DNA of 64,000 nucleotides. It comes from Paractinoplanes atraurantiacus. Its GTDB lineage: Bacteria > Actinomycetota > Actinomycetes > Mycobacteriales > Micromonosporaceae. This document shows, in pieces, positions 8,842 through 39,133 of this stretch. The notes under the pieces were generated by a model. That model ran no database searches. It had not been told where the DNA came from and saw only the letters and a list, made by a program, of their open reading frames with translations. The position numbers and the translations under genes are program-made. The DNA is taken from NCBI RefSeq assembly GCF_900215205.1, contig NZ_OBDY01000017.1, forward strand, positions 69,381 to 133,380, written 5' to 3'. Position 1 is the first letter of the stretch. Every line of letters begins with the position of its first letter.

Positions 8842-9329
8842 CCGAAGCCGACCTGGAACGGCGCCTCCGCGAGGCCCTGTCCGCCCGAGCCGCCGCCGTG
8901 ACAACCCAGGACCTGCGCCCCACCCCGGCTCCGTCCCGCCACCGATCAGCGGCCGCCCGCTGGTGGCTGCCCCTGACCGCCGGAATCGCCGCCGCCGCGG
9001 TATCGATCGTCGCCTTCGCCCTGCTCAGGCCGGCAAACCCAGACCCCGCACCGCCGGCCTCACCGGCAGTCCCCGCCTCACCGGCTTCACCCGCTTCCTC
9101 GACGATCCCCGCTTCGCCGACCTCTACCGCCATCCCCGCTTCACCGACCGCCCCGGCCTCGGCGAGCGGATCCGCATCGCCCACCTCGCCACCGGAAACC
9201 CCATCAACCGTCACCTCGCCCGGTCCTTCCATCTCATCGTCCAAGCCCGAGTCGACCCCTACCGCGTCCCATGGAAAGGCACCCGCCACGCCCGAAGGAA
9301 AACGGATGGTTGGTCCTATTTCGCGCTGA
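8838..9329 (+). CDS. Single-pass membrane protein, possible anti-sigma partner
   Basis: 163 residues. It has a short cytoplasmic N-terminus (MTEADLERRLREALSARAAA), one transmembrane helix (about residues 43-63, LPLTAGIAAAAVSIVAFALL) and a Pro/Ala/Ser/Thr-rich outer tail. Overlap with the sigma gene (ATGA) and the topology suggest a membrane anti-sigma factor, but no zinc-binding anti-sigma motif (HxxxCxxC) is present, so the role is inferred from context. The last codons and stop lie in sequence that matches the repeat family immediately downstream, so the C-terminus may have been replaced by repeat DNA. Confidence 0.65.
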   Translation: MTEADLERRLREALSARAAAVTTQDLRPTPAPSRHRSAAARWWLPLTAGIAAAAVSIVAFALLRPANPDPAPPASPAVPASPASPASSTIPASPTSTAIPASPTAPASASGSASPTSPPETPSTVTSPGPSISSSKPESTPTASHGKAPATPEGKRMVGPISR

Positions 9330-10180
9330 AAGGGCGGACAAAGTAGACGCGGATGGTTGAGGCCATTCCGCGCTGAAAGGGGCGGACTGGGGCACCCGGG
9401 CGGTTGGCTCGGTCCGGGGGCGGCGTGGGCCAGGTGGGCGGTTGCTCTCGGCTGGGGCGGAGCGGGAGACCCGGCGCGGTTGGGCTCGGTCTGCGGTGGA
9501 GGGGGCGAAGCGGGGGGACCCGGCGGTTGGGTTCGGTCCGCGCTGGAAGGCGTGGCGGCGGGGACGCGAGCGGTTGGGTTCGGTCCGCGCTGGAAGGGCC
9601 GGGAGTTGGGGACGCGGGCAGTTGGGCCAGTTCTGCGCGGCAAGGGCGGCGGTGGTGACGCGGCGGTTCGGCTCGGTCCGCGCTGGAAGGGCCGGGAGTT
9701 GGGGACGCGGGCAGTTGGGCCAGTTCTGCGCGGCAAGGGCGGCGGTGGTGACGCGGGTGGTTGGGCACGGTCCGCGCTGGCGGGGGCGGGAGTGGAGCAC
9801 CCGGGCGATTTGGCGTATTTCGCGCCGGAGGGGCGCGGCCGGGGAACGCGGACCGTCGAGGCCGCTGTGCCGGAAGGGGCGGCCGCGGCTGGGGAACCCG
9901 CACCGTCGAGCCTGCTCTGTGCGCCGGAAGAGGCGGAGTGGGAGCCGGACCGTGCGCCCGGTCTGTGCCGGAAGGAGCGAGGCGGCTGTGGCGGGAGCGC
10001 GGACCGTGGAGCTCGGTTTGTGCTGGAAGGGGCGGAGGCTGCTGCGGCTTGGGGAAGCGTGGAACGTCGAGCCCCGTTCGCGTTGGAGGGGTGGGGGAGT
10101 GCGGACCGTGGAGCCCGGTTCGCAGGGGCGGAGCTGACGGCGGCCGGAGGCGCAGACCGATGGGGCTGGTCCGTGCTGAG
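9311..10180 (+). repeat. Array of about 18 degenerate ~47-bp G-rich repeat units
   Basis: Units of 45-48 bp begin with (C/T)CGCGCTG(G)AAGGGGCGG, continue through GGGGACGCGG and end with (G)CGGTTGGGTTCGGT. Clear unit starts are at 9321, 9367, 9538, 9585, 9633, 9678, 9726, 9772, 9820 and about 9866. Later units are more diverged and irregular. A two-unit block at 9581-9663 recurs exactly (83 bp) at 9674-9756, so the array has duplicated recently. Long open frames exist on both strands, but they are repetitive and do not resemble proteins; I see no gene between 9330 and 10409. The array lies directly upstream of aroC. Confidence 0.85.
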
Positions 10181-10409
10181 TTGCCGTGAGAGGCCCTCCG
10201 CGGGTGCCGGCCGCGCAAGAAGGAAGCGGACCGTTGAACCAAAGGGCCGGCCGTGGGCCGTTGGGGCGGGCGTGCGGGCTGGTGAGGAGCGGTCTGCGGC
10301 GTTCCGGTTGGGGGCGGGCGCGCCATGGTTGAGGGGTCTGGGCAGTCCGGCTGGCGGGACGCGGGTGGGTGCGCCGGGAGGGCGCGGCGGGGCGTGGGAG
10401 AATTCTGGG

Positions 10410-11588
10410 GTGTTGCGCTGGCTTACCGCAGGTGAATCGCATGGACCGGCGCTCGTTGCGCTTCTCGAAGGCGTTCCGGCCGGGGTGGAAGTGACGAGTG
10501 CGGAGATCGGGCGCGATCTCGCGCGCCGGCGTCTGGGTTACGGGCGTGGCGCCCGGATGCAGTTCGAGCAGGATGAGATCGAGATCATCGGTGGCATCCG
10601 GCATGGGCTGACGCTCGGTTCGCCGGTGGCCATCCGGGTCGGTAACTCCGAGTGGCCCAAGTGGCAGACCGTCATGGCGGCCGACCCGGTCGACCCGGAG
10701 GAGTTGGCCTCGCAGGCCCGGAACGCTCCTTTGACGCGGCCCCGGCCGGGGCACGCCGATCTCGCCGGTATGCAGAAGTACGGGCACACCGATGCCCGGC
10801 CGATTCTCGAGCGGGCCAGTGCCCGCGAGACCGCGGCCCGCGTGGCCGTCGGTGTCGTGGCCAAGGCGCTGATCAAGCAGGCTCTGGGCATCGAGATCGT
10901 GTCGCATGTGATCGAGCTCGGGTCGGTGGCGGCCAAGGTCGGGCTCATCCCGACGCCGGAGGACGCCGGCCGCATCGACGCCGATCCGCTGCGCTGCCTC
11001 GACCCCGAGGCCAGCGCGCGCATGGTGGCCGAGGTCGACGCGGCCAAGAAGGACGCGGACACGCTCGGCGGCATCGTCGAGGTGCTGGCCTACGGTGTGC
11101 CGCCGGGCCTGGGCACCCATGTGCAGTGGGACCGCAAGCTCGACGCCCGTCTCGCGGCCGCGCTCATGTCGATCCAGTCCGTCAAGGGTGTGGAGATCGG
11201 CGACGGGTTCACGCAGGCCCGGTCGCGTGGTTCCGTCGCCCACGACGAGATCATCCCGACTGCGGACGGGGTGCGCCGGGTGACCGACCGGGCCGGTGGG
11301 CTCGAGGGCGGCATCACCAACGGCGAGCCGCTGCGGGTGCGGGCCGCGCTCAAGCCGATCTCGTCGCTCAACCGGGCGCTGCAGACGGTCGACGTGGTCA
11401 CCGGAGAGCCGGCCACCGCCATCAACCAGCGGTCCGACGTCTGTGCCGTGCCGGCCGGCGGTGTGGTCGCCGAGGCCATGGTGGCGCTGACGCTGGCCGA
11501 GGCCGCCGTCGAGAAGTTCGGTGGCGACTCGGTGGCCGAGATCCGCCGCAACCTGGCCAGCTACCTGGAAAGCCTGGTCATCCGCTGA
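10410..11588 (+). CDS. aroC: Chorismate synthase
   Basis: 392 residues from GTG 10410, preceded by GGGAG nine bases upstream; the open frame extends further upstream only through repeat DNA. It converts 5-enolpyruvylshikimate-3-phosphate to chorismate with reduced FMN. Signatures are [18 protein letters not shown] at the start, [34 protein letters not shown] and, near the C-terminus, [13 protein letters not shown]. The stop overlaps the aroK start by one base, so coupled translation is likely. Any promoter must lie in or beside the repeat array. Confidence 0.97.
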
Positions 11589-12094
11589 TGGCGCCGCGGG
11601 CCGTGTTCGTGGGCGCGCCGGGCGCCGGCAAGTCGACCATCGGCGCCGCCGTGGCGGCGCTGTTGGAGACGGAGTTCGCCGACGCCGACACGATCATCGA
11701 GGAGCGGGCCGGCAAGCCCATCCCGGAGATCTTCATCGACGACGGTGAGGAGGCGTTCCGCGCGCTGGAGCGCCAGGTCATCGCCGAGACGCTGGGGAGC
11801 TTCGACGGGGTGCTGGCGCTCGGCGGCGGTGCCGTCCTGCACGACGGCACGCGCAAGCTGCTCACCGAGCACACTGTGGTCTACCTGTCGGTCGAGCTGA
11901 GCGACGCGGTCAAGCGGGTCGGCCTGGGCGCGGGGCGCCCGCTGCTCAACCTGAACCCGCGGGCGACGCTCAAGTTCCTTCTCGATCAAAGGCGTCCGTT
12001 GTACGCCGAGGTCGCCACCCACACGGTGCCGACCGACGGCCGTGAGCCGCACGAGATCGCGGCCGAGGTGGCGGGGCTGCTCAGGGCAGCCTGA
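11588..12094 (+). CDS. aroK: Shikimate kinase
   Basis: 168 residues. It phosphorylates shikimate with ATP. The Walker A loop GAPGAGKST (about residues 9-17), the shikimate-contact region around DDGEEAFRALE, the Walker-B-like LGGGAVL and the lid segment LGAGRPLL are visible. It starts at ATG overlapping the aroC stop. The 3' end overlaps by 14 nt the convergent end of the NACHT-LRR gene, so the accessory cassette abuts or slightly invades this operon. Confidence 0.96.
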   Translation: MAPRAVFVGAPGAGKSTIGAAVAALLETEFADADTIIEERAGKPIPEIFIDDGEEAFRALERQVIAETLGSFDGVLALGGGAVLHDGTRKLLTEHTVVYLSVELSDAVKRVGLGAGRPLLNLNPRATLKFLLDQRRPLYAEVATHTVPTDGREPHEIAAEVAGLLRAA

Positions 12095-15000
12095 TCCGCA
12101 CGGCCGGGGGCAGGCCCTTCCGGCCGGTGATCCGGTTGCGTTTGGAGAAGGCGATCTCCAGCGGGCCGCCGTGCCAGTCGAGGAACGGCGACAGGTCGAT
12201 CGTGCGGCCCGTCGGGAGCCAGATGCCGATCTCGGTGAGCTGACTCAGACGTACGACCGGGGTCAGATCCACAGCGTCGTCCATGCTCAGCCACAGCATG
12301 CGCAGGCGCGGCGGCGGCCGCAGCGTCTGCAGCGCCGGCGACGTGGGGTCGCGGAGCACCAGGTATTCGACCTGCGGCAGGTCACCGGCGAAGGCGATGT
12401 CGGTCCACTCGGCGCCGGAGAGGGTCAGCACCCGCAGCCGCGGGAAGGCCTCGGCGAGCCGGGCCGGGTCGTCGGCGGTCAGGGTGCCGTGGCCGAGTTC
12501 GAGATGGCCCAGGGCGCTCGGCGGTCCGAAGTCCGCGATCGGCGCCCCTTCGAGGCCCAGCTCCTCCAGCGCGGGCATCGTGGTGAGGGCGGAGACGTCG
12601 GCCGGCTCCGGTCCGAGCCGGACGTGCAGGCTGCGCAGCCCGGTCAGGCCGGCGACCGCGGCGACCGCGTCCGGGTGCAGGGCCGCGCCGTCCGAGACGG
12701 CGAACGTCCGCAAGCCGGCCAGACCCTCCACATCTCGGCGGGTGACCGCGTCGCCGTTCCACAGGTGCAGCTCGCGCAGGCCGGGATAACGGTCGAGGAG
12801 ATGCAGGTTGCGGTGGCCGCGGCCGACCAGGAACAGGTCGGTGAGGGCGGGCGCGGGCGCGAGGTCGGCCACGTCGACCGGGCGGTCGAACCGGGCCCGG
12901 AGGGTGCGCAGGTGGCGCAGATGCCGGGTGGCGCCGAGCAGCGTGGGCTCGGTGATGGTGACGCTGCCGTCGTCGAGGGGCGCCTCGGCCAGCACCCGGG
13001 TCGCGTACTCGGCGGGGTCGAAGGCGCGCCAGGCGTCGATCAGGAGCGTCTGCACCTTCGGGCGCGGGTCGGCGGCGTAGCCGGCCAGCATCGAGAGCGC
13101 GGCCGGGCTGTTGACCAAGGTCACCGTGTCGATGACGGCGGCCGCCTGCGACTCGGTGAGTCCGTCCAGACAGCGGGGCAATCGCGAAAGGATCGGCTCG
13201 CCGATCATCGCCAGTGAGCGGGCCTCCGACTCGCGGCGCGGCGGCAGCAGGGTGTCGAGGCGGCCGAGGATCTCCCCGATCAGGCTGGGCGGCTCCAGCG
13301 CGGGCATCGTCTCCAGGCAGGCCGTGGCCAGCAGGATCAGGGCCCGCCGATAACGCGGCTCGGTGTCGGCCCGGCGCAGCAGGCCCTCGATCAGCTCGGT
13401 GCGCATGGGCGCGTTGCCGTGCCCGGCCGCCATCACGATGATCTCGCGCCACGTGTCGAGGTGAGCCTGGCCGGCCAGCATGCCGCCCATGTTCTGCTCG
13501 GCCGCCTCGTGGGCGGCCAGATATTCGCCGAAGGTGCGGTGGACGAAGTCGACCCGGCCGCCGGCCGGCTCCCGGAGCACGCCGCTGCGCTCGATCAGGT
13601 GATCGAGGACCGGGCCGGGCTCGGCGTGCACGCGCGGCATGGCGGCGAGCCGCCGGGCCAGGTACGCCTCCGCCTCCGTACGGGAAAGCTCGGATCTGTT
13701 GTTGAGAGACAACCGCCAGGCCAGGTCCTGGAGAAGTTGGAGGCGCTCGCGGGCGGTCATGTCGGGCAGGGCGGACGGCACGCCGCGCTCGGTGTCCCGG
13801 CGGTGCAGCAGCATGTCGACCGCGGCCTGATAGACGCCCATCCGATCGGGTGGCAGGTGGGCCTCACGGTCGAGGTTGAGGGCGCACAGCATGGCGGCCA
13901 GCAGCGGGTTGCCGGCCAGACGGTAGAGGTGGCGGTTGGCGGCCAGCCGGGTCAGCAGCGACCGCTCGTACCGGGGCAGCTCGGCCGGCGGGCACGGCAG
14001 GGACGGCGAGTCACGGGCGGCCCGGTGCCACTGGCCGATCAGGGCGCGGACGTCGGCCGGGGAGAGCCGTTCCAAGGTGAGGGAGTCGAACCCGTCCAAC
14101 CGCCCCACCGCCACCCTTGAATCGTGAGCGGCGGGCGGCCGTGAGGTGACGACGACGATTGATGGGGGGTACGTGTCGAGCAGGTCCCGCAGCCAGGTGC
14201 GCACCCGGGGGCGGCGGTCGGCCGGCAGTTCGTCGACGCCGTCGATCAGCAGCAGGGCGCGGCCCTCGGCGAGCTGCCGGTGCGCCCAGCCCGGCGGCAT
14301 CGTGCCGGCGATCGGATCGGCCACACCGGTCAGGAACTGCTCGGGCGCGGGGAGGGCCGACGGCCAGCTCCGCAACTTGATCAGGAACGGGACGCGGCCG
14401 TTCCAGTCGGTGAGCGGGCCGGTGAAGCCGCCGCGGGCGGCGGTCACGGCCAGCCAGCGCAGGAGTGTGGACTTGCCGGCGCCGGCCTCGCCGCGGATCA
14501 GGGTGCGCCGGCGTTTGGCCAGGGCCTGTTCAACGCGCTCGGCGCCGGTGTTGTCGGGGCGGGAGTGCCGCAGCAGGGCCGGCTCCCAGTGGGGCTTGCC
14601 GGTGGGGCGGTCGCCGGTGACGGCGAGGCTGATGTAGGCGACGCTCAGTGTGGTGCGGGGGCGGAACTGGGTCTCGACGCCGACGAGCTCGAGGACGTTG
14701 AGTTTGGCGGTCAGCACATCGGCGTAAGAGCGAAGGAAGTCGGCCGGAACCGGACCGCCCACCGCGAGATGGCGCAGGGCCTCCGACATCGTCCGGGTGA
14801 GCTCGGTCAGCCGGGACAGCGTCTCGACGGCGGCGCGGTGGCCGAACGGGGCCGTCCGCACGACGAACTGGGTGAAGCAGCGGCTGCAATCGTCGAGCGC
14901 GACGTCGTACAGCCGCTGACCGAGCTCGGAGAGGCCGGCCGGCGGCGCGCTCCGCCGCAGGTGGGCGGCGAGGCGTACGGGGTCGAGGTCGGTCGCGAAG

Positions 15001-15317
15001 AGCGCGTCGTCGGTGAGATCGGCCCGGCGGAACGTGTCGGCGACGGCGTCCAGGGCGGCGACGGCCTCGTGCGGCGGCAGCGCGGCGAAACGGGTCGTGA
15101 CCAGCGGTCCGAGCCGTTCGGCGACCTCGTCGACGACCGCCTCGATCTGGCGCTCGCCGCGGCGTCGGGTGAACTCGTCCTTCGCGGTCTGCTGGAGCAG
15201 GTCGGCCAGCGGCAGGGTGCGCTCGCGGGTCTGCCGCCGGCCGCTCAGCCAGCGCGTGAACAGGGGCGTGACGACGGCACGGCCCACATTGAGCAGTGCG
15301 GTCTCGACTCCCGTCAC
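12081..15317 (-). CDS. NACHT-domain NTPase with C-terminal leucine-rich repeats
   Basis: 1078 residues from GTG 15317; the frame stays open further upstream, but only through the antisense of other genes. Seen: a helical N-terminal region of about 230 residues (MTGVETALLNVGRAVVTPLF), Walker A GEAGAGKSTLLRWL at about 275-290, the NACHT-type Walker B ALLLIDGVDELPAD at about 355-368, VVVTSRPP after it, and LAGNPLLAAMLCAL further on. About 250 C-terminal residues form leucine-rich repeats spaced 22-25 residues (LRELHLWNGD, LRSLHVRLGP, LEELGLEGAP, LRVLTLSGAE). This is the STAND/NLR-like architecture shown for several bacterial NACHT proteins to give phage defence. No effector domain is recognised in the N-terminal part. 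The gene follows the Clp-N-like gene by 14 nt and is probably its operon partner. Confidence 0.92.
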   Translation of the reverse strand: MTGVETALLNVGRAVVTPLFTRWLSGRRQTRERTLPLADLLQQTAKDEFTRRRGERQIEAVVDEVAERLGPLVTTRFAALPPHEAVAALDAVADTFRRADLTDDALFATDLDPVRLAAHLRRSAPPAGLSELGQRLYDVALDDCSRCFTQFVVRTAPFGHRAAVETLSRLTELTRTMSEALRHLAVGGPVPADFLRSYADVLTAKLNVLELVGVETQFRPRTTLSVAYISLAVTGDRPTGKPHWEPALLRHSRPDNTGAERVEQALAKRRRTLIRGEAGAGKSTLLRWLAVTAARGGFTGPLTDWNGRVPFLIKLRSWPSALPAPEQFLTGVADPIAGTMPPGWAHRQLAEGRALLLIDGVDELPADRRPRVRTWLRDLLDTYPPSIVVVTSRPPAAHDSRVAVGRLDGFDSLTLERLSPADVRALIGQWHRAARDSPSLPCPPAELPRYERSLLTRLAANRHLYRLAGNPLLAAMLCALNLDREAHLPPDRMGVYQAAVDMLLHRRDTERGVPSALPDMTARERLQLLQDLAWRLSLNNRSELSRTEAEAYLARRLAAMPRVHAEPGPVLDHLIERSGVLREPAGGRVDFVHRTFGEYLAAHEAAEQNMGGMLAGQAHLDTWREIIVMAAGHGNAPMRTELIEGLLRRADTEPRYRRALILLATACLETMPALEPPSLIGEILGRLDTLLPPRRESEARSLAMIGEPILSRLPRCLDGLTESQAAAVIDTVTLVNSPAALSMLAGYAADPRPKVQTLLIDAWRAFDPAEYATRVLAEAPLDDGSVTITEPTLLGATRHLRHLRTLRARFDRPVDVADLAPAPALTDLFLVGRGHRNLHLLDRYPGLRELHLWNGDAVTRRDVEGLAGLRTFAVSDGAALHPDAVAAVAGLTGLRSLHVRLGPEPADVSALTTMPALEELGLEGAPIADFGPPSALGHLELGHGTLTADDPARLAEAFPRLRVLTLSGAEWTDIAFAGDLPQVEYLVLRDPTSPALQTLRPPPRLRMLWLSMDDAVDLTPVVRLSQLTEIGIWLPTGRTIDLSPFLDWHGGPLEIAFSKRNRITGRKGLPPAVRIRLP

Positions 15318-15331
15318 GTGGCGGACTGTAC

Positions 15332-16009
15332 TCAGCCCACGCGACTTTCCAAGCGTTCGATGCGTTCGATCAGAGGAGCGAGCACCGCGGCCAGCGTCTC
15401 GCTCGGGCGAGCGTTGTTCGCGCGCAGGTGGGCGTATCCGGCGAGGGCCGCGCTGACCGCGCGGCGGGTGGCCCGGGCGTCGGCGCCGCGGGCGCGCAGG
15501 GTCTCGCCGGCGGCGCCGTCGGGCTCGGCGGCCAGGGCGATGAGCAGGTGCTCGCAGCCGACGTAGTTGTGGCCGAGGCCGATCGCCTCGCCGACGGCCA
15601 GTTCCAGGGCGATGGCGGCCGACCGGCTGAAGCGCGGGCCGGTGGCGTCGCTGGTCGGCTCGGCCGTGGTGGGCGCGGTCAGCGTGGTGGGCGGGATGTC
15701 CATCGCGGTGAGGATCTGCAAGGCCAGGTTGTCGCCCTCGGCCAGGATGCCGTGCAGCAGGGCGCCGCTGGTCACGGGCTCCCCGCGCTGGGCCGCCAGC
15801 CCCAGGACGGTGACCAGGCGGGCGGTGAAGCTGGGGAGGCGCTCGGCCAGGGCGGCCGGGTCGAGGTCGTGGGCGGTGGCGTCGCGGATGGCGGCGACCC
15901 GCTGGACGGCCTGTTCGAGGGCGCGCTGGCAGATCGCCGAGACGGGGATGCCGCTCTCGCGGACGGCGTCGGCGAGATCGTCGGGCAGGTACACGTTGAT
16001 TTTCGGCAT
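15332..16009 (-). CDS. Ribbon-helix-helix-like plus Clp N-terminal repeat protein
   Basis: 225 residues. The N-terminus (MPKINVYLPDDLADAVRES, then ICQRALEQAVQR) looks like a ribbon-helix-helix DNA-binding or dimerisation module. Residues of about 75-115 and 130-195 look like two Clp N-terminal (ClpA/C substrate-recognition) repeats, the second with the typical LGHNYVGCEHLLIALAAEP. There is no AAA+ domain, so it is not a Clp ATPase; it may be a regulator, adaptor or sensor. It lies directly upstream of the NACHT gene and divergent from aroB. Its association with the NACHT gene is inferred from the 14-nt spacing. Confidence 0.85.
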   Translation of the reverse strand: MPKINVYLPDDLADAVRESGIPVSAICQRALEQAVQRVAAIRDATAHDLDPAALAERLPSFTARLVTVLGLAAQRGEPVTSGALLHGILAEGDNLALQILTAMDIPPTTLTAPTTAEPTSDATGPRFSRSAAIALELAVGEAIGLGHNYVGCEHLLIALAAEPDGAAGETLRARGADARATRRAVSAALAGYAHLRANNARPSETLAAVLAPLIERIERLESRVG

Positions 16010-16037
16010 GGCTCATGTGTAACCCGTCTGGGGGTAG

Positions 16038-17590
<1,553 letters not shown>

Positions 17591-33327: not shown

Positions 33328-34518
33328 GTGGCACGCCGCCTGTTCACCTCCGAGTCGGTCACGGAAGGCCACCCGGACAAGATCGCTGACCAGATCAGCG
33401 ACGGTATTCTCGACGCGCTGCTCCGGCAGGACCCGCGCAGCCGCGTCGCGGTGGAAACGTTGATCACGACCGGCCAGGTGCACGTGGCGGGTGAGGTCAC
33501 CACCCAGGCCTACGCCGACATCCCGAGCATCGTGCGCGACACCATCCTGCGCATCGGCTACGACTCGTCGAAGAAAGGCTTCGACGGCGCGTCCTGCGGC
33601 GTCAGCGTGTCCATCGGCTCCCAGTCGCCCGACATCGCCCAGGGTGTGGACAGCGCCCTCGAGCTGCGCGAGGGCGACAGCGAGCACGTGCTCGACTCCC
33701 AGGGCGCCGGCGACCAGGGCATGATGTTCGGCTTCGCCTGCTCCGAGACGCCCGAGCTGATGCCGCTCCCGATCGCGCTGGCGCACCGCCTGGCCCGCCG
33801 CCTGTCGAAAGCCCGCAAGGACGGCACGATCCCGTACCTGCGTCCCGACGGCAAGACCCAGGTCACCATCGAGTACGACGGTTTCAAGCCGGTACGCCTC
33901 GACACGGTGGTCGTCTCGTCGCAGCACGCGGCCGACATCTCCCTGGAGTCACTGCTCACGCCGGACATCCGCGAGCACGTGATCGCCCCCGAGCTCGAGG
34001 GCCTCGGCCTCGACATCGACGGCTACCGCCTGCTGGTCAACCCGACCGGCCGCTTCGAGATCGGCGGCCCGATGGGCGACGCCGGCCTCACCGGCCGGAA
34101 GATCATTGTCGACACGTACGGCGGCTACTCGCGCCACGGCGGCGGCGCGTTCTCGGGCAAGGACCCGTCCAAGGTGGACCGCTCGGCGGCCTACGCGATG
34201 CGCTGGGTGGCGAAGAACGTGGTGGCGGCCGGCCTGGCCGAGCGCTGCGAGACCCAGGTGGCGTACGCCATCGGCAAGGCCCACCCGGTGTCGCTGTTCG
34301 TGGAGACGTTCGGCACGGAGAACGTTCCGGTGGAGCGCATCGAGAAGGCCATCAACGAGGTCTTCGACCTGCGCCCGGCGGCCATCATCCGCGACCTCGA
34401 CCTGCTGCGGCCGATCTACCAGCAGACGGCGGCGTACGGGCACTTCGGGCGGGAGATCCCGGAGCTGCTCTGGGAGAACACGGACCGTGCCCAGGATCTG
34501 AAGAACGCGGCTGCCTGA
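33328..34518 (+). CDS. metK: S-adenosylmethionine synthetase
   Basis: 396 residues from GTG 33328, with GAGGAG four bases upstream; a TTG further upstream is unlikely. It makes SAM from methionine and ATP. Motifs: [51 protein letters not shown] and the lysine/aspartate set around. A terminator follows. No SAM riboswitch was recognised in its short leader. Confidence 0.97.
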
Positions 34519-34533
34519 GGTTTCCGCTCTTGA

Positions 34534-34576
34534 GCCGGTGCCCCGCGTTTGTGGGGTGCCGGCTTTTGGCTTTCTT
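34534..34576 (+). terminator. Rho-independent terminator after metK
   Basis: The 13-bp stem GCCGGTGCCCCGC / GTGGGGTGCCGGC (three G-T pairs) with a GTTT loop is followed by TTTTGGCTTTCTT. It starts 15 bases after the metK stop. Confidence 0.9.
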
Positions 34577-34586
34577 GCGCTGGGAC

Positions 34587-34665
34587 GGTTGAGGGCCGGG
34601 TGTGGCCGACCCTGACTGGCTGGGGAGCGCTTTATGTCTGGGTCGGCCACACCCGGCCCTCAACC
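34587..34665. repeat. Perfect 26-bp inverted repeat with 27-bp spacer
   Basis: The left arm 34587-34612 (GGTTGAGGGCCGGG...) and right arm 34640-34665 are exact reverse complements over 26 bp, with 27 bp between them. It lies just beyond the metK terminator. It could form a large cruciform or RNA hairpin, or be the remnant of a small palindromic element. There is no coding sequence inside. Confidence 0.9.
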
Positions 34666-36248
34666 TTGCGTGGTGGTCGGCTGCGGCTGGGTGGGTGGTT
34701 ACTCGCTGCTTGGTGGTACGACGGGTTGCTGCTCACCTTGCGCGGGATGCGGGAGATGTTCGCTGCCGCGCTGGGGTGCGGCCGGGGGAGCCGGTCGGGC
34801 GGGCGGGGCTGAGTGGTGGGTTGATCGGCAATTCCATGCCGGTCACGCGGGTTCGATGGCTGGGGAAGACCTTGCGGGCGTACGGCCTCCCGTGCGCGGG
34901 GCGTTCGTCTCGTCGCTCGGGTCTCGCTTGGCCGGGCCTTGTCCTGTCCCTCAGCCGCCTTGGCCTTCGTTCGGGTGCTTGTTGTGGTGGCGCTCGCTAT
35001 TTGCCCGGCCGCACCCTTCTCGCATTGCCACCATTTCGCCGCCGTTCGGGCCGTCGGCTCGGCCGCGGTGTCGTAACCCGGCCGCTGTTCGGCTCGGCTT
35101 GCGCTTTGCCTTCGGTCGGCCGTAGGGCCGCTCCGCTTTACCCCGGCTGGCCGTTGCGCGGCACCGAGTCCGACCTGGCCTCCGTCCGGTGTTCGGTCGG
35201 CTCCGGCTCCACCGGCGTTCGGCCTACGGTTCGGCTCTGGGCTTGCCGGCCGCGCCGGTCTTGCGGCGCCCTTGCTCGCCTGCCTTTGCGCTTGCGTGGC
35301 TCCCCGATCGGTCGCGCGTGCATCCGGCGGTCGGCCGTCTGCGTCCTGCTTCCTGCGCCCGCGCGATCTGGCTCGGTCGCCGCGTACCACGCCGTCCGCC
35401 GTCTGCGCTTCGTCATCCTGCGCCTGCGTGCCCGCGCTGGGTCGCCTGCGCCTTGCCCCTGCGCCCTGACCCCCTGCGCCCGCGCTTCGGCTTCCTGCGC
35501 CCGCGCCCAGGCCTTTGCGCGTGCGCCCCGGGCCTCTGCGCCTCGGCTCCTTGCGCCTGCGCCTCGGCTCCTTGCGCCTGCGCCTCGGCTCCTTGCGCCT
35601 GCGCCTCGGCCCCCTGTGCCCGGGCTCTGCGCCCGCGCCCTGGGCCTTTGCGCTTGCGCCTCACCCTCAGCCTCTGCGCCCGCGCCTCGGCCCCTTGCGT
35701 CCGCGCCTCGGCCCCCTGCGCCCGGGCTCTGCGCCTGCACCCCGGGCCTCCGCGCTTGCGCCTTAGCCCTCTGCGCCTGGGCCCGGGCCCCCTACGCCCG
35801 CGCCCGCGCCTCTGCGCCCGCGCCCGCGCCTCGGCCCCCTGCGCTCGGGCCCGCACCTGCGCCTCCGCTCCCTGCGCCCGCGACCCGGCCCCTGCGCCTG
35901 CGCCCCGCGCCTCGGCCCCCTGCGCCCGGCCTCTGCGCCCGCGCCCGGCCTCTGCGCCCGCGCCCCGGCCTCTGCGCCCGCGCCCCGGCCCCTGCGCCCG
36001 CGCCCCGGCCTCCTCCGCTTGCGTGTTGCGGGCTCGGCGCCCGTGTGAGCCGCTCTCGGGCGCGTGGGGCACTGTCTTGGTTGCTTTCTGCTTTTGGGTG
36101 GCCGCCGGGATGCTCACTATCGGTTACGGGAAAGGGGCTTATGGGGGCTTGGGAGGAAAGGGGTTTGGGGTGTGTAAAGGGGGCAGGATGCATTCTGAGC
36201 TGGGGAGCGTGTGTTGTTGGGATGATCTTGGCGGTAGTCTCTCGGGGC
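34666..36248. other. Non-coding region, pyrimidine-rich on the plus strand
   Basis: About 1.6 kb between the inverted repeat and the SMI1/KNR4-like gene. Long open frames on both strands are a by-product of extreme G+C and low complexity; none reads as a protein I recognise. The plus strand is C/T-rich from about 34900 to 36040, most strongly in the tandem repeats of 35400-36040. From 36050 to 36248 composition returns towards normal and probably carries the promoter of the downstream gene. Confidence 0.6.
35400..36040. repeat. C-rich short tandem repeats including a 21-bp unit
   Basis: At 35541-35610 the unit CCTCGGCTCCTTGCGCCTGCG recurs with exact 21-bp period (35541, 35562, 35583, 35604). 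Variants of CTGCGCCCGCGCC(C)CGGCC fill the rest to about 36040 with less regular spacing. The minus strand carries many runs of three to five G at short spacing, so it has quadruplex-forming potential. No in-frame constraint is apparent. Confidence 0.85.
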
Positions 36249-36935
36249 ATGGGTCAAGATCAAACTGGGGGAGCCGTCACGCTGTGGTGTGCGGTGGGGG
36301 TTGGGGAGCTCGAGGAGATCGAGGCCGGTGAGTGGCGGGGTCTGCCGGAAGGTGGGGACCGTCGGGTGTTCGCGTTCCGGGAGGCGGCGGAGCGTGTTGC
36401 CCGGGAAGAGTTTGTGGGTGAGGGCGGCGCGGGCTTCGTACTGAAGCTTGAGGTTGGCCCGGAGTTCTTCGCGGATGGTGCGGCGCCCGAAGAGATGCGG
36501 GTGGACACCGCGGAACTGAACACGCAGCTTGTGGGGGCTGTCGTGGAGGTTCTGGACTTTCGCGGGGCGGTTGATGACAAGGAGTTCGCCGAGGGGGCTG
36601 CGCTTCCGGCTGAGTGGCGCGCCTATCTGCAGTCGGACTCGTGGCTTCGGCGGGGGCTGCTGGCGTCGGGGAAGTACGTGTGGCTCTATCCGCCGGCAGA
36701 AGGGCGTGCGGTTCTGGCGATCTGGGAGGCCGAGGAGCGGTTTCCGGGGATCGCGCTCATCGGTGGGGATGGTGGGCTCGAGAACTTCGTCTTCGATCTG
36801 CGGCAGGACCCGGCTCCGGTTCTGATGGTGAGCAACGCCAGCGAGTCGTGGGATGACGCGATCGTTCAGGCGCCGGATGCGAAGGACTTCGTCAAGCGGC
36901 TCGAGGACGGCACCTTCGACTTGGTGGTCGGCTAG
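36249..36935 (+). CDS. Hypothetical protein with SMI1/KNR4-like C-terminal region
   Basis: 228 residues from ATG 36249; the open frame continues upstream only through repeat DNA. The N-terminal 110 residues (AVTLWCAVGVGELEEIEAGE, VFAFREAAERVAREEF) resemble a domain often found in actinomycete proteins that start VTLWRPVG. The C-terminal part (ERFPGIALIGGDGGLENFVF, VSNASESWDDAIVQAPD) looks like the second half of a SMI1/KNR4 (SUKH) domain, common among immunity proteins of polymorphic toxins. No toxin gene is nearby. It ends convergent with priA, overlapping it by 4 nt. Confidence 0.75.
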   Translation: MGQDQTGGAVTLWCAVGVGELEEIEAGEWRGLPEGGDRRVFAFREAAERVAREEFVGEGGAGFVLKLEVGPEFFADGAAPEEMRVDTAELNTQLVGAVVEVLDFRGAVDDKEFAEGAALPAEWRAYLQSDSWLRRGLLASGKYVWLYPPAEGRAVLAIWEAEERFPGIALIGGDGGLENFVFDLRQDPAPVLMVSNASESWDDAIVQAPDAKDFVKRLEDGTFDLVVG

Positions 36936-39133
36936 AAGAGAGCTGTGGGGTCGACCTCGATGCGTACGGGCTGAGGTGCCTTTTTGGCGCTGCGGACGGC
37001 GGCGGCCTCGTGCAGAGCGTGAGCGAGCGGGGCGGCCTTGGAGCGGGGGACCCGCAGGAGCATGCGCTCCTGGTCGTCGGGGGCGGGCACCGGGCCGAGC
37101 AGTTCCACGTCGGCGGGTAGACGGGCCGTGTCGAGGAAGTCGTTGACGGCCTCGGTCAGGCCGGTGACGCTGGCCATGCGGGCGGCGGGCGGGAAGCCGA
37201 GCTCGCGGCGTTCGGTCAGTTCGCGCGTGGCGAACCAGGCCGGATCCCAGCGGATCAAGGCCTGGACGGTGGCCAGGGAGCCGTCGGCGACGACGATGAC
37301 GCGGCCGTGCGGCGCCGGCTTGGCCAGGGCGGCGGCGTTGAACCAGCGGCGCATGGTTTCCTCGGCGGCGCGCAGGTCGGAGCGGGTCAGCAGCGCCCAC
37401 GTGTCGAGCAGGAGCACGGCGCCGTAGCCGCCCTCGGCGACCGGCTCGGCGCCGGGCGTGGAGACGACGACGCTCGCCTCGGCGGGGACGGTGTCGAGGA
37501 CCTCGTCGCGGCCGGACGTGCGCACTGTCGCGCCGGGAAAGGCACGGCCCAATTCTTCGGCCGTACGCCGGGCGCCGGTCACCGAGGCGCGCAGGCGCCG
37601 GCCGCCGCAGGTGGGGCACGCGTACGCGGCGGCGGCCCGGCCGCACCAGCGGCAGGTGGGCACGTCGCGGGCGCCGGAGAGCTCGAGCGAGCCCGAGCAA
37701 TGTGGACACCGGGCGGGCGTACGGCAATCGGCGCAGGCGATCGACGGCAGATAGCCCCGCCGGGGAACCTGGACCAGCACCGGCGTGCCGGCCTGCAAAG
37801 CTTGCCGCGCCGCCTGCCAGGCCAGACTGGGCAGCCGCGCGGTGGCGGCGCCCGGATCCCGCGCCAGCTGCGGATCGTCGCCGGTCGGCTGGATCGCCGG
37901 CGCCCGCTGCCGCAGCACATCCCGCCCGGCGCTGATCTCTTTAGCCCAGCCGGTTTCGAGGAGCAATTGCCCTTCGCCCGTACGCGCGAAGCCCGCCACA
38001 AGCGCAGCCGACCCCGCCAGCTGGGCCCGCGTCAGAAGCACCTCCCGCGCGTGCGGATAGGGCGCTCGCGGCTCCCCGTGCAGATCGTCCCCGTCGTCCC
38101 AGATGACCACGAGCCCGAGCTTGGCCACCGGCGCCCACATGCCCGCCCGCGTGCCCACCACCACCGGCACCTGATGCCGGCTGGCTGCGAGGAACCGCCG
38201 GTACCGCTCCGCCGGCCCGAGCGCCGCGTTCAGCGCCACATGCTGTCCAGGCCCCAGCGCCACCCCGAGGGCCCGATCCACCCGTTCGAGATCCCGCGCG
38301 TCCGCCACCACGATGACAACCCCGCGCCCACCCCGAACCGTGGCCGCGGCCGCCTCAGCGATCCGGGCCGCCCAGTCCTCACCCGGCAGCGCCCCCCAGA
38401 CGGCACGCGCATCGCGCCCGTCCGCGAGCGCCCGCAGAAAGGCCGGCCCAGCGACATACGAACCCCAGCCACCAACCTCAACCGCAGTACGCGCCACGTG
38501 TTCCTCGTCCGCGCCGCTTCCGGCCGTGCTCTCCTCCCGGCCGACCGCGCTGTCTCCTGCCGCGCCGTCCTCGGTCCTGGCGTCGGTCGTGCCGGGCGAT
38601 TCAGCTCCGAGGGCCGCGGCCGCGTCGCCGGTGTTCCCGCCAGCGACGGCGAGGTCGGCGACGGCGAGGTGGGCGACGGCGAGGTCGGTGGCGGCGAGGG
38701 GGGCTGAGGGCTTGGCGGGCTGTGCCTCCACCCGGGCGTGGCGTGGGGGGACGGCCAGGCGCAGGACGTCGCAGAGGTTGCCGGCGTAGCGGTCGGCTGT
38801 GGCTCGGGCCAAGCGGGCGATCTCGGGGTCGAGGACCTGCTCGGGGGAGACGACCTTTTCGAGGTAGGCGAGTTTGCCGCCGTGGGGGGACGTCTCCGCG
38901 CGCTCCAGCAGGAAGCCGCTCACCAGCTGGCCGGCGAAGCGGACCTTTACCCGCACGCCGGGCTGGGCGGCCTCGTCGTCGGTGGCGGAGACCAGGTAGT
39001 CGAAGGGGCGGTCCAGGTGGGGCAGCGGGACGTCGACGCAGACGCGGGCCACCGGCAGGGTCTCTGCCGGTACTCGGTCTGCTCGCGTGCCCTTGGTCGC
39101 CATCGCAGCCATTCTGCCCGGACCCCCTGACAT
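36932..39133 (-). CDS. priA: Primosomal protein N' (PriA-type, degenerate helicase)
   Basis: 733 residues from ATG 39133 (ATG 39112 is an alternative). The N-terminal 3'-DNA-binding domain (VARVCVDVPLPHLDRPFDYL, RVKVRFAGQLVSGFLL) is followed by a helicase-like core and the zinc-binding region CADCRTPARCPHCSG ... CRWCG ... CPTCGG. Where other PriA proteins have Walker A, GKT is absent (GGRGVVIVVADARDLERVD), as known for actinobacterial PriA, so it is probably not an active ATPase. An Ala-rich insert of about 70 residues (DLAVAHLAVADLAVAGG) between domains is unusual. Confidence 0.93.
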   Translation of the reverse strand: MSGGPGRMAAMATKGTRADRVPAETLPVARVCVDVPLPHLDRPFDYLVSATDDEAAQPGVRVKVRFAGQLVSGFLLERAETSPHGGKLAYLEKVVSPEQVLDPEIARLARATADRYAGNLCDVLRLAVPPRHARVEAQPAKPSAPLAATDLAVAHLAVADLAVAGGNTGDAAAALGAESPGTTDARTEDGAAGDSAVGREESTAGSGADEEHVARTAVEVGGWGSYVAGPAFLRALADGRDARAVWGALPGEDWAARIAEAAAATVRGGRGVVIVVADARDLERVDRALGVALGPGQHVALNAALGPAERYRRFLAASRHQVPVVVGTRAGMWAPVAKLGLVVIWDDGDDLHGEPRAPYPHAREVLLTRAQLAGSAALVAGFARTGEGQLLLETGWAKEISAGRDVLRQRAPAIQPTGDDPQLARDPGAATARLPSLAWQAARQALQAGTPVLVQVPRRGYLPSIACADCRTPARCPHCSGSLELSGARDVPTCRWCGRAAAAYACPTCGGRRLRASVTGARRTAEELGRAFPGATVRTSGRDEVLDTVPAEASVVVSTPGAEPVAEGGYGAVLLLDTWALLTRSDLRAAEETMRRWFNAAALAKPAPHGRVIVVADGSLATVQALIRWDPAWFATRELTERRELGFPPAARMASVTGLTEAVNDFLDTARLPADVELLGPVPAPDDQERMLLRVPRSKAAPLAHALHEAAAVRSAKKAPQPVRIEVDPTALF

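What the first reader, a model, noticed from the sequence alone, without database searches (positions are those of the whole stretch)
12081..16009. Clp-N/ribbon-helix-helix protein plus NACHT-LRR NTPase: candidate defence or signalling cassette inside the aro operon
Seen: a 225-residue protein with an RHH-like N-terminus and two Clp N-terminal-type repeats lies 14 nt upstream of a 1078-residue protein with Walker A/B of NACHT type and C-terminal leucine-rich repeats. Both run against the shikimate operon and split aroK from aroB. Known: bacterial NACHT and other STAND NTPases act in phage defence as NLR-like sensors with varied effectors. Inference: the LRRs sense, NACHT switches, and the Clp-N protein regulates or recruits proteolysis. 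I know of no described system with this pairing. No effector domain is recognised in the NACHT N-terminus, so the partner or the helical N-terminus would have to supply it.
Basis: partly seen in the sequence, partly recalled or inferred. Interest (0 to 1): 0.75.

Follow-up and report, generated by a model that had tools for sequence, protein, structure and literature searches.

The report
ClpC-decoy repressor beside a solitary bacterial NLR
Two neighbouring genes in an Actinoplanes-type soil bacterium look like one defence cassette but are more likely independent: one is a self-regulating look-alike of the part of the ClpC protease that several natural antibiotics bind, with a DNA-binding head unlike that of its known relative, and the other is an ordinary immune-receptor-like protein that shares the same gap in the chromosome.

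Summary
Both genes are real and the coordinates are right. 15332-16009(-) is a CcdA-type ribbon-helix-helix (RHH) head fused to a ClpC N-terminal domain; 12081-15317(-) is NNH1-NACHT-LRR. They are not a conserved pair: in 67 genus genomes the aroK-aroB slot holds both in 3, NACHT alone in 3, Clp-N alone in 45, neither in 16 (p=0.34), and only here are they adjacent. Slot NACHTs form one clade with one exception and reach a second genus, which suggests mostly vertical descent with loss.

The better finding is the small protein. It resembles mycobacterial ClpC2, an autorepressor and cyclomarin sponge, but has another DNA-binding head and operator. GGGGTTA/TAACCCC-like half-sites lie directly upstream in 77 of 81 loci (control genes 1 of 1096). 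A genus-wide pattern gave 48 sites, all 20-24 nt upstream of this gene. The genome also carries a ClpC2-like gene with the published operator. Two of three cyclomarin-contact residues are kept. Outside the slot its recurrent downstream neighbour is an asparaginase (18 of 50 loci). I read it as a second, separately wired, autoregulated ClpC decoy. The NACHT is a solitary NLR-like protein whose LRRs diverge between lineages but not among closest kin. No function was tested.

The parts
15332..16009 (-). RHH-ClpN gene, 225 aa: autoregulated ClpC-NTD decoy (proposed)
15881..16003 (-). Ribbon-helix-helix DNA-binding head (residues 3-43); MPKINVYL invariant in 66 of 66 aligned sequences
   Evidence: Pfam CcdA over cut-off; invariant columns; AF2 monomer: residues 1-9 without assigned structure, helices 10-19 and 23-43 (the strand would form only in a dimer, which was not modelled); profile hits to VapB26 E 0.013 and a CopG RHH protein E 0.2, both weak
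15416..15859 (-). ClpC N-terminal-domain-like double Clp repeat (residues 51-198); F127 = ClpC1 F80, E136 = ClpC1 E89
16019..16051 (-). Proposed operator of RHH-ClpN: GGGGTTATATCTTTCTACCCCC (16030-16051) plus GGGTTAC (16019-16025); the first site ends 20 nt before the ATG
12081..15317 (-). NNH1-NACHT-LRR STAND NTPase, 1078 aa, GTG start; its 3' end overlaps the aroK 3' end by 14 bp (convergent)
14775..15293 (-). NNH1 (NACHT N-terminal helical domain 1), residues 9-181
   Evidence: Pfam 173.7 bits; AF2 all-helical, mean pLDDT 72.6; no PDB match at E<=0.001
14019..14510 (-). NACHT NTPase domain, residues 270-433
12180..12920 (-). Leucine-rich repeats, residues 800-1046; divergent between lineages
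15325..15352 (-). Possible own promoter of NACHT: TTGGAA-16 nt-TACAGT overlapping the 3' end of RHH-ClpN; TACAGTCCGC recurs just before the NACHT starts in L150 and L153 (read by eye)
   Evidence: not tested statistically
11588..12094 (+). aroK, one edge of the slot
16110..17165 (+). aroB, other edge of the slot (start 16110 or 16137), divergent from RHH-ClpN

Best explanation
The two genes are independent occupants of one permissive gap in the aro operon. (1) RHH-ClpN is a stand-alone copy of the ClpC N-terminal (ligand-binding) domain on an RHH head. A dimer represses its own promoter by binding GGGGTTA/TAACCCC half-sites just upstream. When its Clp domain meets a ClpC ligand (an antibiotic peptide, a misfolded substrate or a phage protein) repression lifts, the protein accumulates, and it competes for the ligand, sparing ClpC1P. 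Shown by sequence: the Clp domain, operator-like sites whose exact pattern occurs only at this gene in the genus, and conservation of two ligand-contact residues. Inferred from ClpC2: repression, ligand release and sponge action. (2) NNH1-NACHT-LRR is a solitary NLR-like switch: LRRs sense, NACHT oligomerises, and the helical NNH1 domain signals or kills by an unknown route. Shown: architecture, purifying selection on the core, LRR divergence between lineages, one slot clade with patchy presence. Inferred: immune function.
For: Clp domain: profile hits ClpC1 E 4e-34 and ClpC2 8ad9 E 3e-23; best fold match ClpC1-NTD with ecumicin, E 2e-7. E89 -> E136 in 66 of 66 and F80 -> F127 in 64 of 66. Operator: at least two relaxed half-sites in 77 of 81 upstream regions against 1 of 1096 other genes; genus pattern 48 sites in 67 genomes, all 48 at 20-24 nt upstream of this gene (reversed-pattern control 1 site); one site in 10.9 Mb of the own genome. 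ClpC2 precedent: PMC10030653. Independence: slot table 3/3/45/16, Fisher p=0.34; layout in G041 and G056; 0 of 29 NACHT upstream regions with the motif. NACHT: tree; dN/dS in the seven unsaturated pairs of eight: 0.03-0.24 in NNH1, NACHT and 434-640, 0.23-0.69 in LRRs.
Against: F2, the third cyclomarin contact of ClpC1, aligns to L58 here and is L in 49 of 66, so cyclomarin itself may not bind. The motif was seen by eye in the sequences then counted; these are the best 80 of 209 loci plus the window; the control regions include genes inside operons. 19 of 67 genomes have no exact pattern match, and 13 of those do have a Clp-N gene. A palindrome pattern gave 0 of 148 in a class sample where only 6 (own genome included, which lacks that exact palindrome) carry the gene, so specificity beyond the genus is untested. 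In this window the 14-nt gap would let NACHT be read through from the Clp-N promoter. Listed contig lengths suggest both genes share a contig in five further records (71,200 and 16,570 bp; also 311,570, 863,814 and 10,745,302 bp, where this need not mean proximity). No dN/dS exceeds 1, and LRRs are 91% and 74% identical in the two closest proteins. Ilamycin and ecumicin bind Mtb ClpC2 without inducing it (PMC12913811 passages).
Confidence: 0.65

Rival explanations
1. Functional cassette: the Clp-N protein is the regulator, partner or guarded decoy of the NACHT-LRR, and ligand binding to the decoy is what the NLR senses or is switched on by.
For: 14-nt spacing in one orientation; both genes in the slot in 3 of 67 genus genomes and possibly on one contig in five further records (listed contig lengths only); a chaperone-linked NLR precedent: bNACHT25 needs DnaJ to sense phage (PMC12169576 passages).
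Against: No association in the slot (p=0.34); NACHT without slot Clp-N in G004, G026, G036; Clp-N without NACHT in 45 of 67; a 644-aa ATPase-like gene and an oxidoreductase-like remnant between them in L021/L149; no shared operator.
Confidence: 0.12
2. RHH-ClpN is an antitoxin-like or general RHH regulator whose Clp domain is a degron or adaptor that delivers it to ClpC1P (regulated proteolysis) rather than a ligand sponge.
For: CcdA-like RHH head; some records name it a CcdA-family antitoxin; RelI of M. tuberculosis is a ClpC2-related antitoxin (PMC13284704 passages).
Against: No small toxin-like gene stood out among the recurrent neighbour families of 50 non-slot loci (the 12 largest were shown; the largest is an asparaginase). 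The double Clp repeat is a ligand-binding domain in ClpC, and two pocket residues are conserved.
Confidence: 0.15
3. The NACHT-LRR is not immune: it is a developmental or transcriptional STAND regulator of these filamentous bacteria.
For: PADLOC gives only a weak mad8 hit to the P-loop (15 bits); relatives do not sit among defence genes (98 neighbours: 8 PADLOC models at E<=1e-10, each matched by one protein); slot copies appear mostly vertical.
Against: LRR divergence between lineages, patchy presence (8 of 67 genus genomes at E<1e-200; 28 of 354 family genomes at E<=1e-150), and an architecture shared with bacterial NLRs.
Confidence: 0.3

Closest known systems
ClpC2 (Mycobacterium; PDB 8AD9, 8ADA; PMC10030653)
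   Same: Small protein without AAA+ modules; ClpC1-NTD-like C-terminal domain; operator-like sequence directly upstream of its own start
   Different: RHH head instead of a four-helix-bundle N-terminal domain; half-sites GGGGTTA/TAACCCC instead of CGTCAAC-n5-GTTGACG; F2 contact replaced by L; a ClpC2-like gene with the published operator coexists in this genome
Mycobacterial ClpC3 (PMC10864484 passages only)
   Same: Described there as a second small Clp protein sharing the ClpC1 ligand-binding site
   Different: Not compared by sequence here
Bacterial NLR / bNACHT proteins (PMC12169576 passages)
   Same: N-terminal domain, central NACHT, C-terminal sensor (LRR); apparently a single-gene unit
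   Different: NNH1 in place of a recognised effector; no antiphage test; no known trigger
RelI antitoxins (PMC13284704 passages)
   Same: DNA-binding protein related to ClpC2
   Different: RelI resembles ClpC2 in the HTH region and pairs with the toxin RelS; here the HTH is replaced by RHH and the Clp domain is kept

Membership tests
ClpC2 | C-terminal region homologous to the ClpC1 NTD (two Clp repeats) | tested here: met
ClpC2 | No AAA+ modules | tested here: met
   225 aa; only Clp_N and RHH-type families found
ClpC2 | Four-helix-bundle N-terminal dimerisation domain | tested here: not met
   residues 3-40 match CcdA RHH; two helices 10-19 and 23-43 in the AF2 monomer; RHH profile hits weak but consistent
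ClpC2 | Operator CGTCAAC-n5-GTTGACG just upstream of the start | tested here: not met
   absent here; present twice at the ClpC2-like gene of the same genome (L160); here GGGGTTA/TAACCCC
ClpC2 | Cyclomarin-contact residues F2, F80, E89 of ClpC1 conserved | tested here: inconclusive
   F80 and E89 kept; F2 is L58
ClpC2 | Autorepression relieved by ligand; sponge protection | not testable with these tools
   needs DNA-shift, binding and deletion experiments
Bacterial NLR (bNACHT) | NACHT domain with Walker A/B | tested here: met
   PF05729 80.8 bits over cut-off 26.7; motifs
Bacterial NLR (bNACHT) | C-terminal LRR | tested here: met
   matches to solved LRR proteins over 799-1046; Pfam LRR below cut-off
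Bacterial NLR (bNACHT) | Recognisable N-terminal effector domain | tested here: inconclusive
Bacterial NLR (bNACHT) | Antiphage activity | not testable with these tools
   no experiment
EruA antiphage protein (NF058535) | Score above the curated cut-off of 1000 bits | tested here: not met
   34.8 bits

The most novel reading that the evidence does not exclude
RHH-ClpN is a modular sensor that wires 'something is occupying ClpC's ligand pocket' to whatever gene lies downstream: an asparaginase in many genera and, in this lineage, an NLR. The NACHT-LRR would then be an immune receptor whose expression is gated by a decoy of the cell's own protease, a bacterial decoy-guard arrangement that responds to ClpC-targeting toxins or phage proteins.
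Probability: 0.1. Interest if true: 0.8.

Novelty: new variant of a known kind. Interest (0 to 1): 0.52.

Why it matters
ClpC1 is the target of cyclomarin, ecumicin, lassomycin and rufomycin/ilamycin (PMC10030653, PMC10864484, PMC12913811). ClpC2 showed that mycobacteria can carry an inducible decoy of the targeted domain. A second decoy type, with an unrelated DNA-binding head and operator and present beside a ClpC2-like gene in one genome, would mean that this wiring arose at least twice in actinomycetes. It also offers one short, apparently single-target operator, so the idea can be tested on one promoter. The asparaginase neighbour is a lead to what is sensed. The NACHT part adds an uncharacterised NLR-like family whose LRRs diverge between lineages.

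Tried and rejected
Cassette hypothesis: rejected as the main reading on the slot table, the layouts in G041 and G056 and the lack of a shared operator. For the slot table I gave the script 10 of the 18 NACHT places; the other 8 lie on other contigs than aroB or, in one single-contig genome (G051), megabases away, by inspection. 'In the slot' means opposite strand and within 8 kb upstream of aroB; slots cut by contig ends were not checked.

Defence-neighbourhood hypothesis: 100 neighbour references from 27 loci were generated, 98 scanned (two in the aroB/aroQ part of L186 were left out by me). PADLOC at E<=1e-10 matched 8 models, each in one protein: two WYL, two QatA, PifA, two PDC candidates, Cas3c. 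Pfam neighbours were mixed (102 families, 25 shown). No recurrent partner seen.

Regulon beyond itself: one site in the own genome, no site away from the gene in 67 genus genomes. Class-wide palindrome: 0 of 148, uninformative.

LRRs as steadily fast-evolving: weakened (LRR identity 91% and 74% in the two closest proteins, then 27-40% in the next four aligned, NNH1/NACHT/434-640 at 78-83% in those four). This looks like jumps or replacement between lineages; recombination was not tested.
Full report
WHAT IS THERE. The window lies in a 10.9 Mb genome; the nearest named relatives of the Clp-N protein are Actinoplanes species (full-length hits at 88-91% identity). Between aroK and aroB, antisense to both, lie a 225-residue gene (15332-16009) and, 14 nt further on, a 1078-residue gene (12081-15317). 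A codon-usage gene caller trained on window genes picks both with these ends (printed before that script stopped). Pfam finds CcdA-type RHH (residues 3-40, 24.7 bits, cut-off 22.4) and two Clp_N stretches in the small protein; NNH1 (9-181) and NACHT (270-433) in the large one. The C-terminus of the large protein matches solved bacterial LRR proteins over residues 799-1046.

THE TWO GENES ARE SEPARABLE. I searched 67 genus genomes (own included) with each protein and with aroB and compared coordinates. The Clp-N gene is in 61 of 67, in the slot in 48. NACHT is in the slot in 6. Both are in the slot in 3 (G000, G041, G056), NACHT alone in 3 (G004, G026, G036), Clp-N alone in 45, neither in 16. 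Fisher p=0.34. Among the three with both, only the window has them adjacent: G041 has a 644-aa ATPase-like gene (AAA_16 32.5 bits, just under the cut-off of 32.6) and an 84-aa oxidoreductase-like remnant between them, and G056 about 1 kb without a called gene. In 30 named slot loci among the 80, my caller finds no gene between Clp-N and aroK in 12; the others hold an oxidoreductase, a polysaccharide deacetylase, a WYL-type regulator with or without an alpha/beta hydrolase, the ATPase, or (L021) NACHT (names given by me from sequence, apart from the ATPase). Against this reading: contig lengths listed for homologs suggest that both genes share a contig in five further records, two of them short enough (71,200 and 16,570 bp) to mean proximity, so co-location may be commoner in the window's subclade than the 67 genomes show.

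THE NACHT PROTEIN. Of 354 family genomes, 28 have a relative at E<=1e-150, in varied contexts. In a 30-row tree the seven slot NACHTs, including one from another genus (G331, between aroK and aroB with two more reading frames), form one clade together with one other row, the second copy of G036 (L153). I read this as mostly vertical descent with loss. Window against five slot copies (L149, L148, L150-L152), L153 and L186: NNH1 58-80%, NACHT 68-79%, residues 434-640 69-80%, residues 641-799 53-66%, LRR 22-39%. Pairwise dN/dS (Nei-Gojobori, eight pairs, one saturated outside the LRRs) is 0.23-0.69 in the LRRs and 0.03-0.24 in NNH1, NACHT and 434-640 for the seven other pairs; none exceeds 1. The two closest database proteins keep the LRRs (91% and 74%) and the next four aligned drop to 27-40%, so divergence is between lineages rather than continuous. 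Neighbours of relatives show no recurrent partner and little defence content (98 proteins). NNH1 gave no structural match. A paper search for NNH1 with NACHT gave one irrelevant hit.

THE SMALL PROTEIN. Residues 51-198 fold as a ClpC NTD (AF2 mean pLDDT 86; best match ClpC1-NTD with ecumicin). A family profile hits ClpC1 at E 4e-34 and ClpC2 8ad9 at E 3e-23. Across 66 aligned sequences MPKINVYL and E136 are invariant. Aligned with the ClpC1 of this genome, F80 -> F127 (64 of 66 F), E89 -> E136 (66 of 66), F2 -> L58 (49 of 66 L, 14 F). PMC10030653 names these three as critical for cyclomarin binding to ClpC1, and describes Mtb ClpC2 as a cyclomarin-induced autorepressor and sponge with a four-helix-bundle N-terminus and operator CGTCAAC-n5-GTTGACG (first of eight parts and passages read). 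The head here is RHH instead: Pfam over cut-off, helices 10-19 and 23-43 in the AF2 monomer with residues 1-9 unassigned (the dimer strand was not modelled), and top profile hits to VapB26 and a CopG protein (weak, E 0.013 and 0.2).

OPERATOR. Reading the upstream regions of the best 80 of 209 loci plus the window, I saw GGGGTTA/TAACCCC-like half-sites. Counting in 120 nt: at least one exact half-site in 78 of 81, at least two relaxed half-sites in 77 of 81 (31 of 31 slot, 46 of 50 others; L042, L052, L063, L074 have one). In 1096 other genes of the same loci the figures are 1 and 1; many of those lie inside operons, so the control is generous. The commonest spacing places TAACCCC and GGGGTTA 10-12 bp apart, start to start. 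Because the motif was found in these sequences, I ran a fixed pattern over 67 genus genomes (many of the same species): 48 sites in 48 genomes, reversed-pattern control 1, all 48 lying 20-24 nt upstream of this gene, including copies outside the aro slot (G013, G026, G030, G053). Of the 19 genomes without an exact match, 13 have the gene, so the exact pattern is not universal. The own genome has one site. None of 29 NACHT upstream regions has the half-sites.

RELATIVES IN THE SAME GENOME. A 233-aa ClpC2-like protein (L160, 4544-5245) has two copies of the published ClpC2 operator directly upstream (read by eye; not compared residue by residue with Mtb ClpC2). A 201-aa Clp-N protein without a DNA-binding domain (L161, 4233-4838) follows a 78-codon reading frame that looks like an HTH. 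If borne out, three wirings of the same domain coexist.

NEIGHBOUR OUTSIDE THE SLOT. In 18 of 50 loci outside the aro slot an asparaginase (PF00710 and PF17763, two members checked) lies downstream on the same strand, starting 727-1180 nt after the Clp-N start; none does in the 30 slot loci or at the own locus. Fourteen are in the family found by my gene caller (two of them short); L052, L073, L074 and L081 were seen by tblastn only. Its role is unknown.

READING. Sequence shows the Clp domain, the dedicated operator-like sites and the conserved pocket residues. Autorepression, ligand release and sponge action are inferred by analogy with ClpC2. In Mtb, ilamycin and ecumicin bind ClpC2 but do not induce it (PMC12913811 passages), so the ligand cannot be guessed. 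For the NACHT protein an NLR-like sensing role is inferred from architecture and the LRR pattern; bNACHT25 shows that such proteins can sense through a host chaperone (PMC12169576 passages), which keeps a link to a protease decoy possible but unsupported.

NOVELTY. Eight paper searches in an open-licence library showed, in the listings and the passages I read, no description of an RHH-headed ClpC-NTD protein or of this gene pair; one search listed 20 of 166 papers, and subscription papers are not covered. I file the small protein as a new variant of the ClpC2 kind, not as ClpC2 itself, since the head and operator tests failed, and the NACHT protein as a member of the bacterial NLR kind by architecture only.

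Noticed in passing
L160:4544-5245(-), own genome C22 about 150.5-151.2 kb: ClpC2-like protein (233 aa) with two copies of the published ClpC2 operator CGTCAAC-n5-GTTGACG directly upstream
   Followed up: partly
L161:4233-4838(-), own genome C23 about 65.2-65.8 kb: ClpC-NTD-like protein (201 aa) without DNA-binding head, preceded by a 78-codon frame that looks like an HTH: perhaps a split version of ClpC2
   Followed up: no
18 loci, for example L046, L048, L054, L063, L079: Asparaginase gene directly downstream of RHH-ClpN in 18 of 50 non-slot loci
   Followed up: partly
own genome C42:240424-242839 (L157): NACHT paralogue read as two adjacent frames (846 and 199 aa): two genes, a frameshift or an assembly error
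   Followed up: no
L017, L019, L020, L021 slot: 584-818 aa ATPase-like gene in some Actinoplanes slots, in three of them overlapping the 3' end of RHH-ClpN
   Followed up: partly
window 34001-37000: Very strong AT skew (-0.43 to -0.45) unlike the rest of the window
   Followed up: no
window about 8900-10400: GC-rich stretch between the aroE region and aroC with long overlapping, probably spurious ORFs on both strands
   Followed up: no
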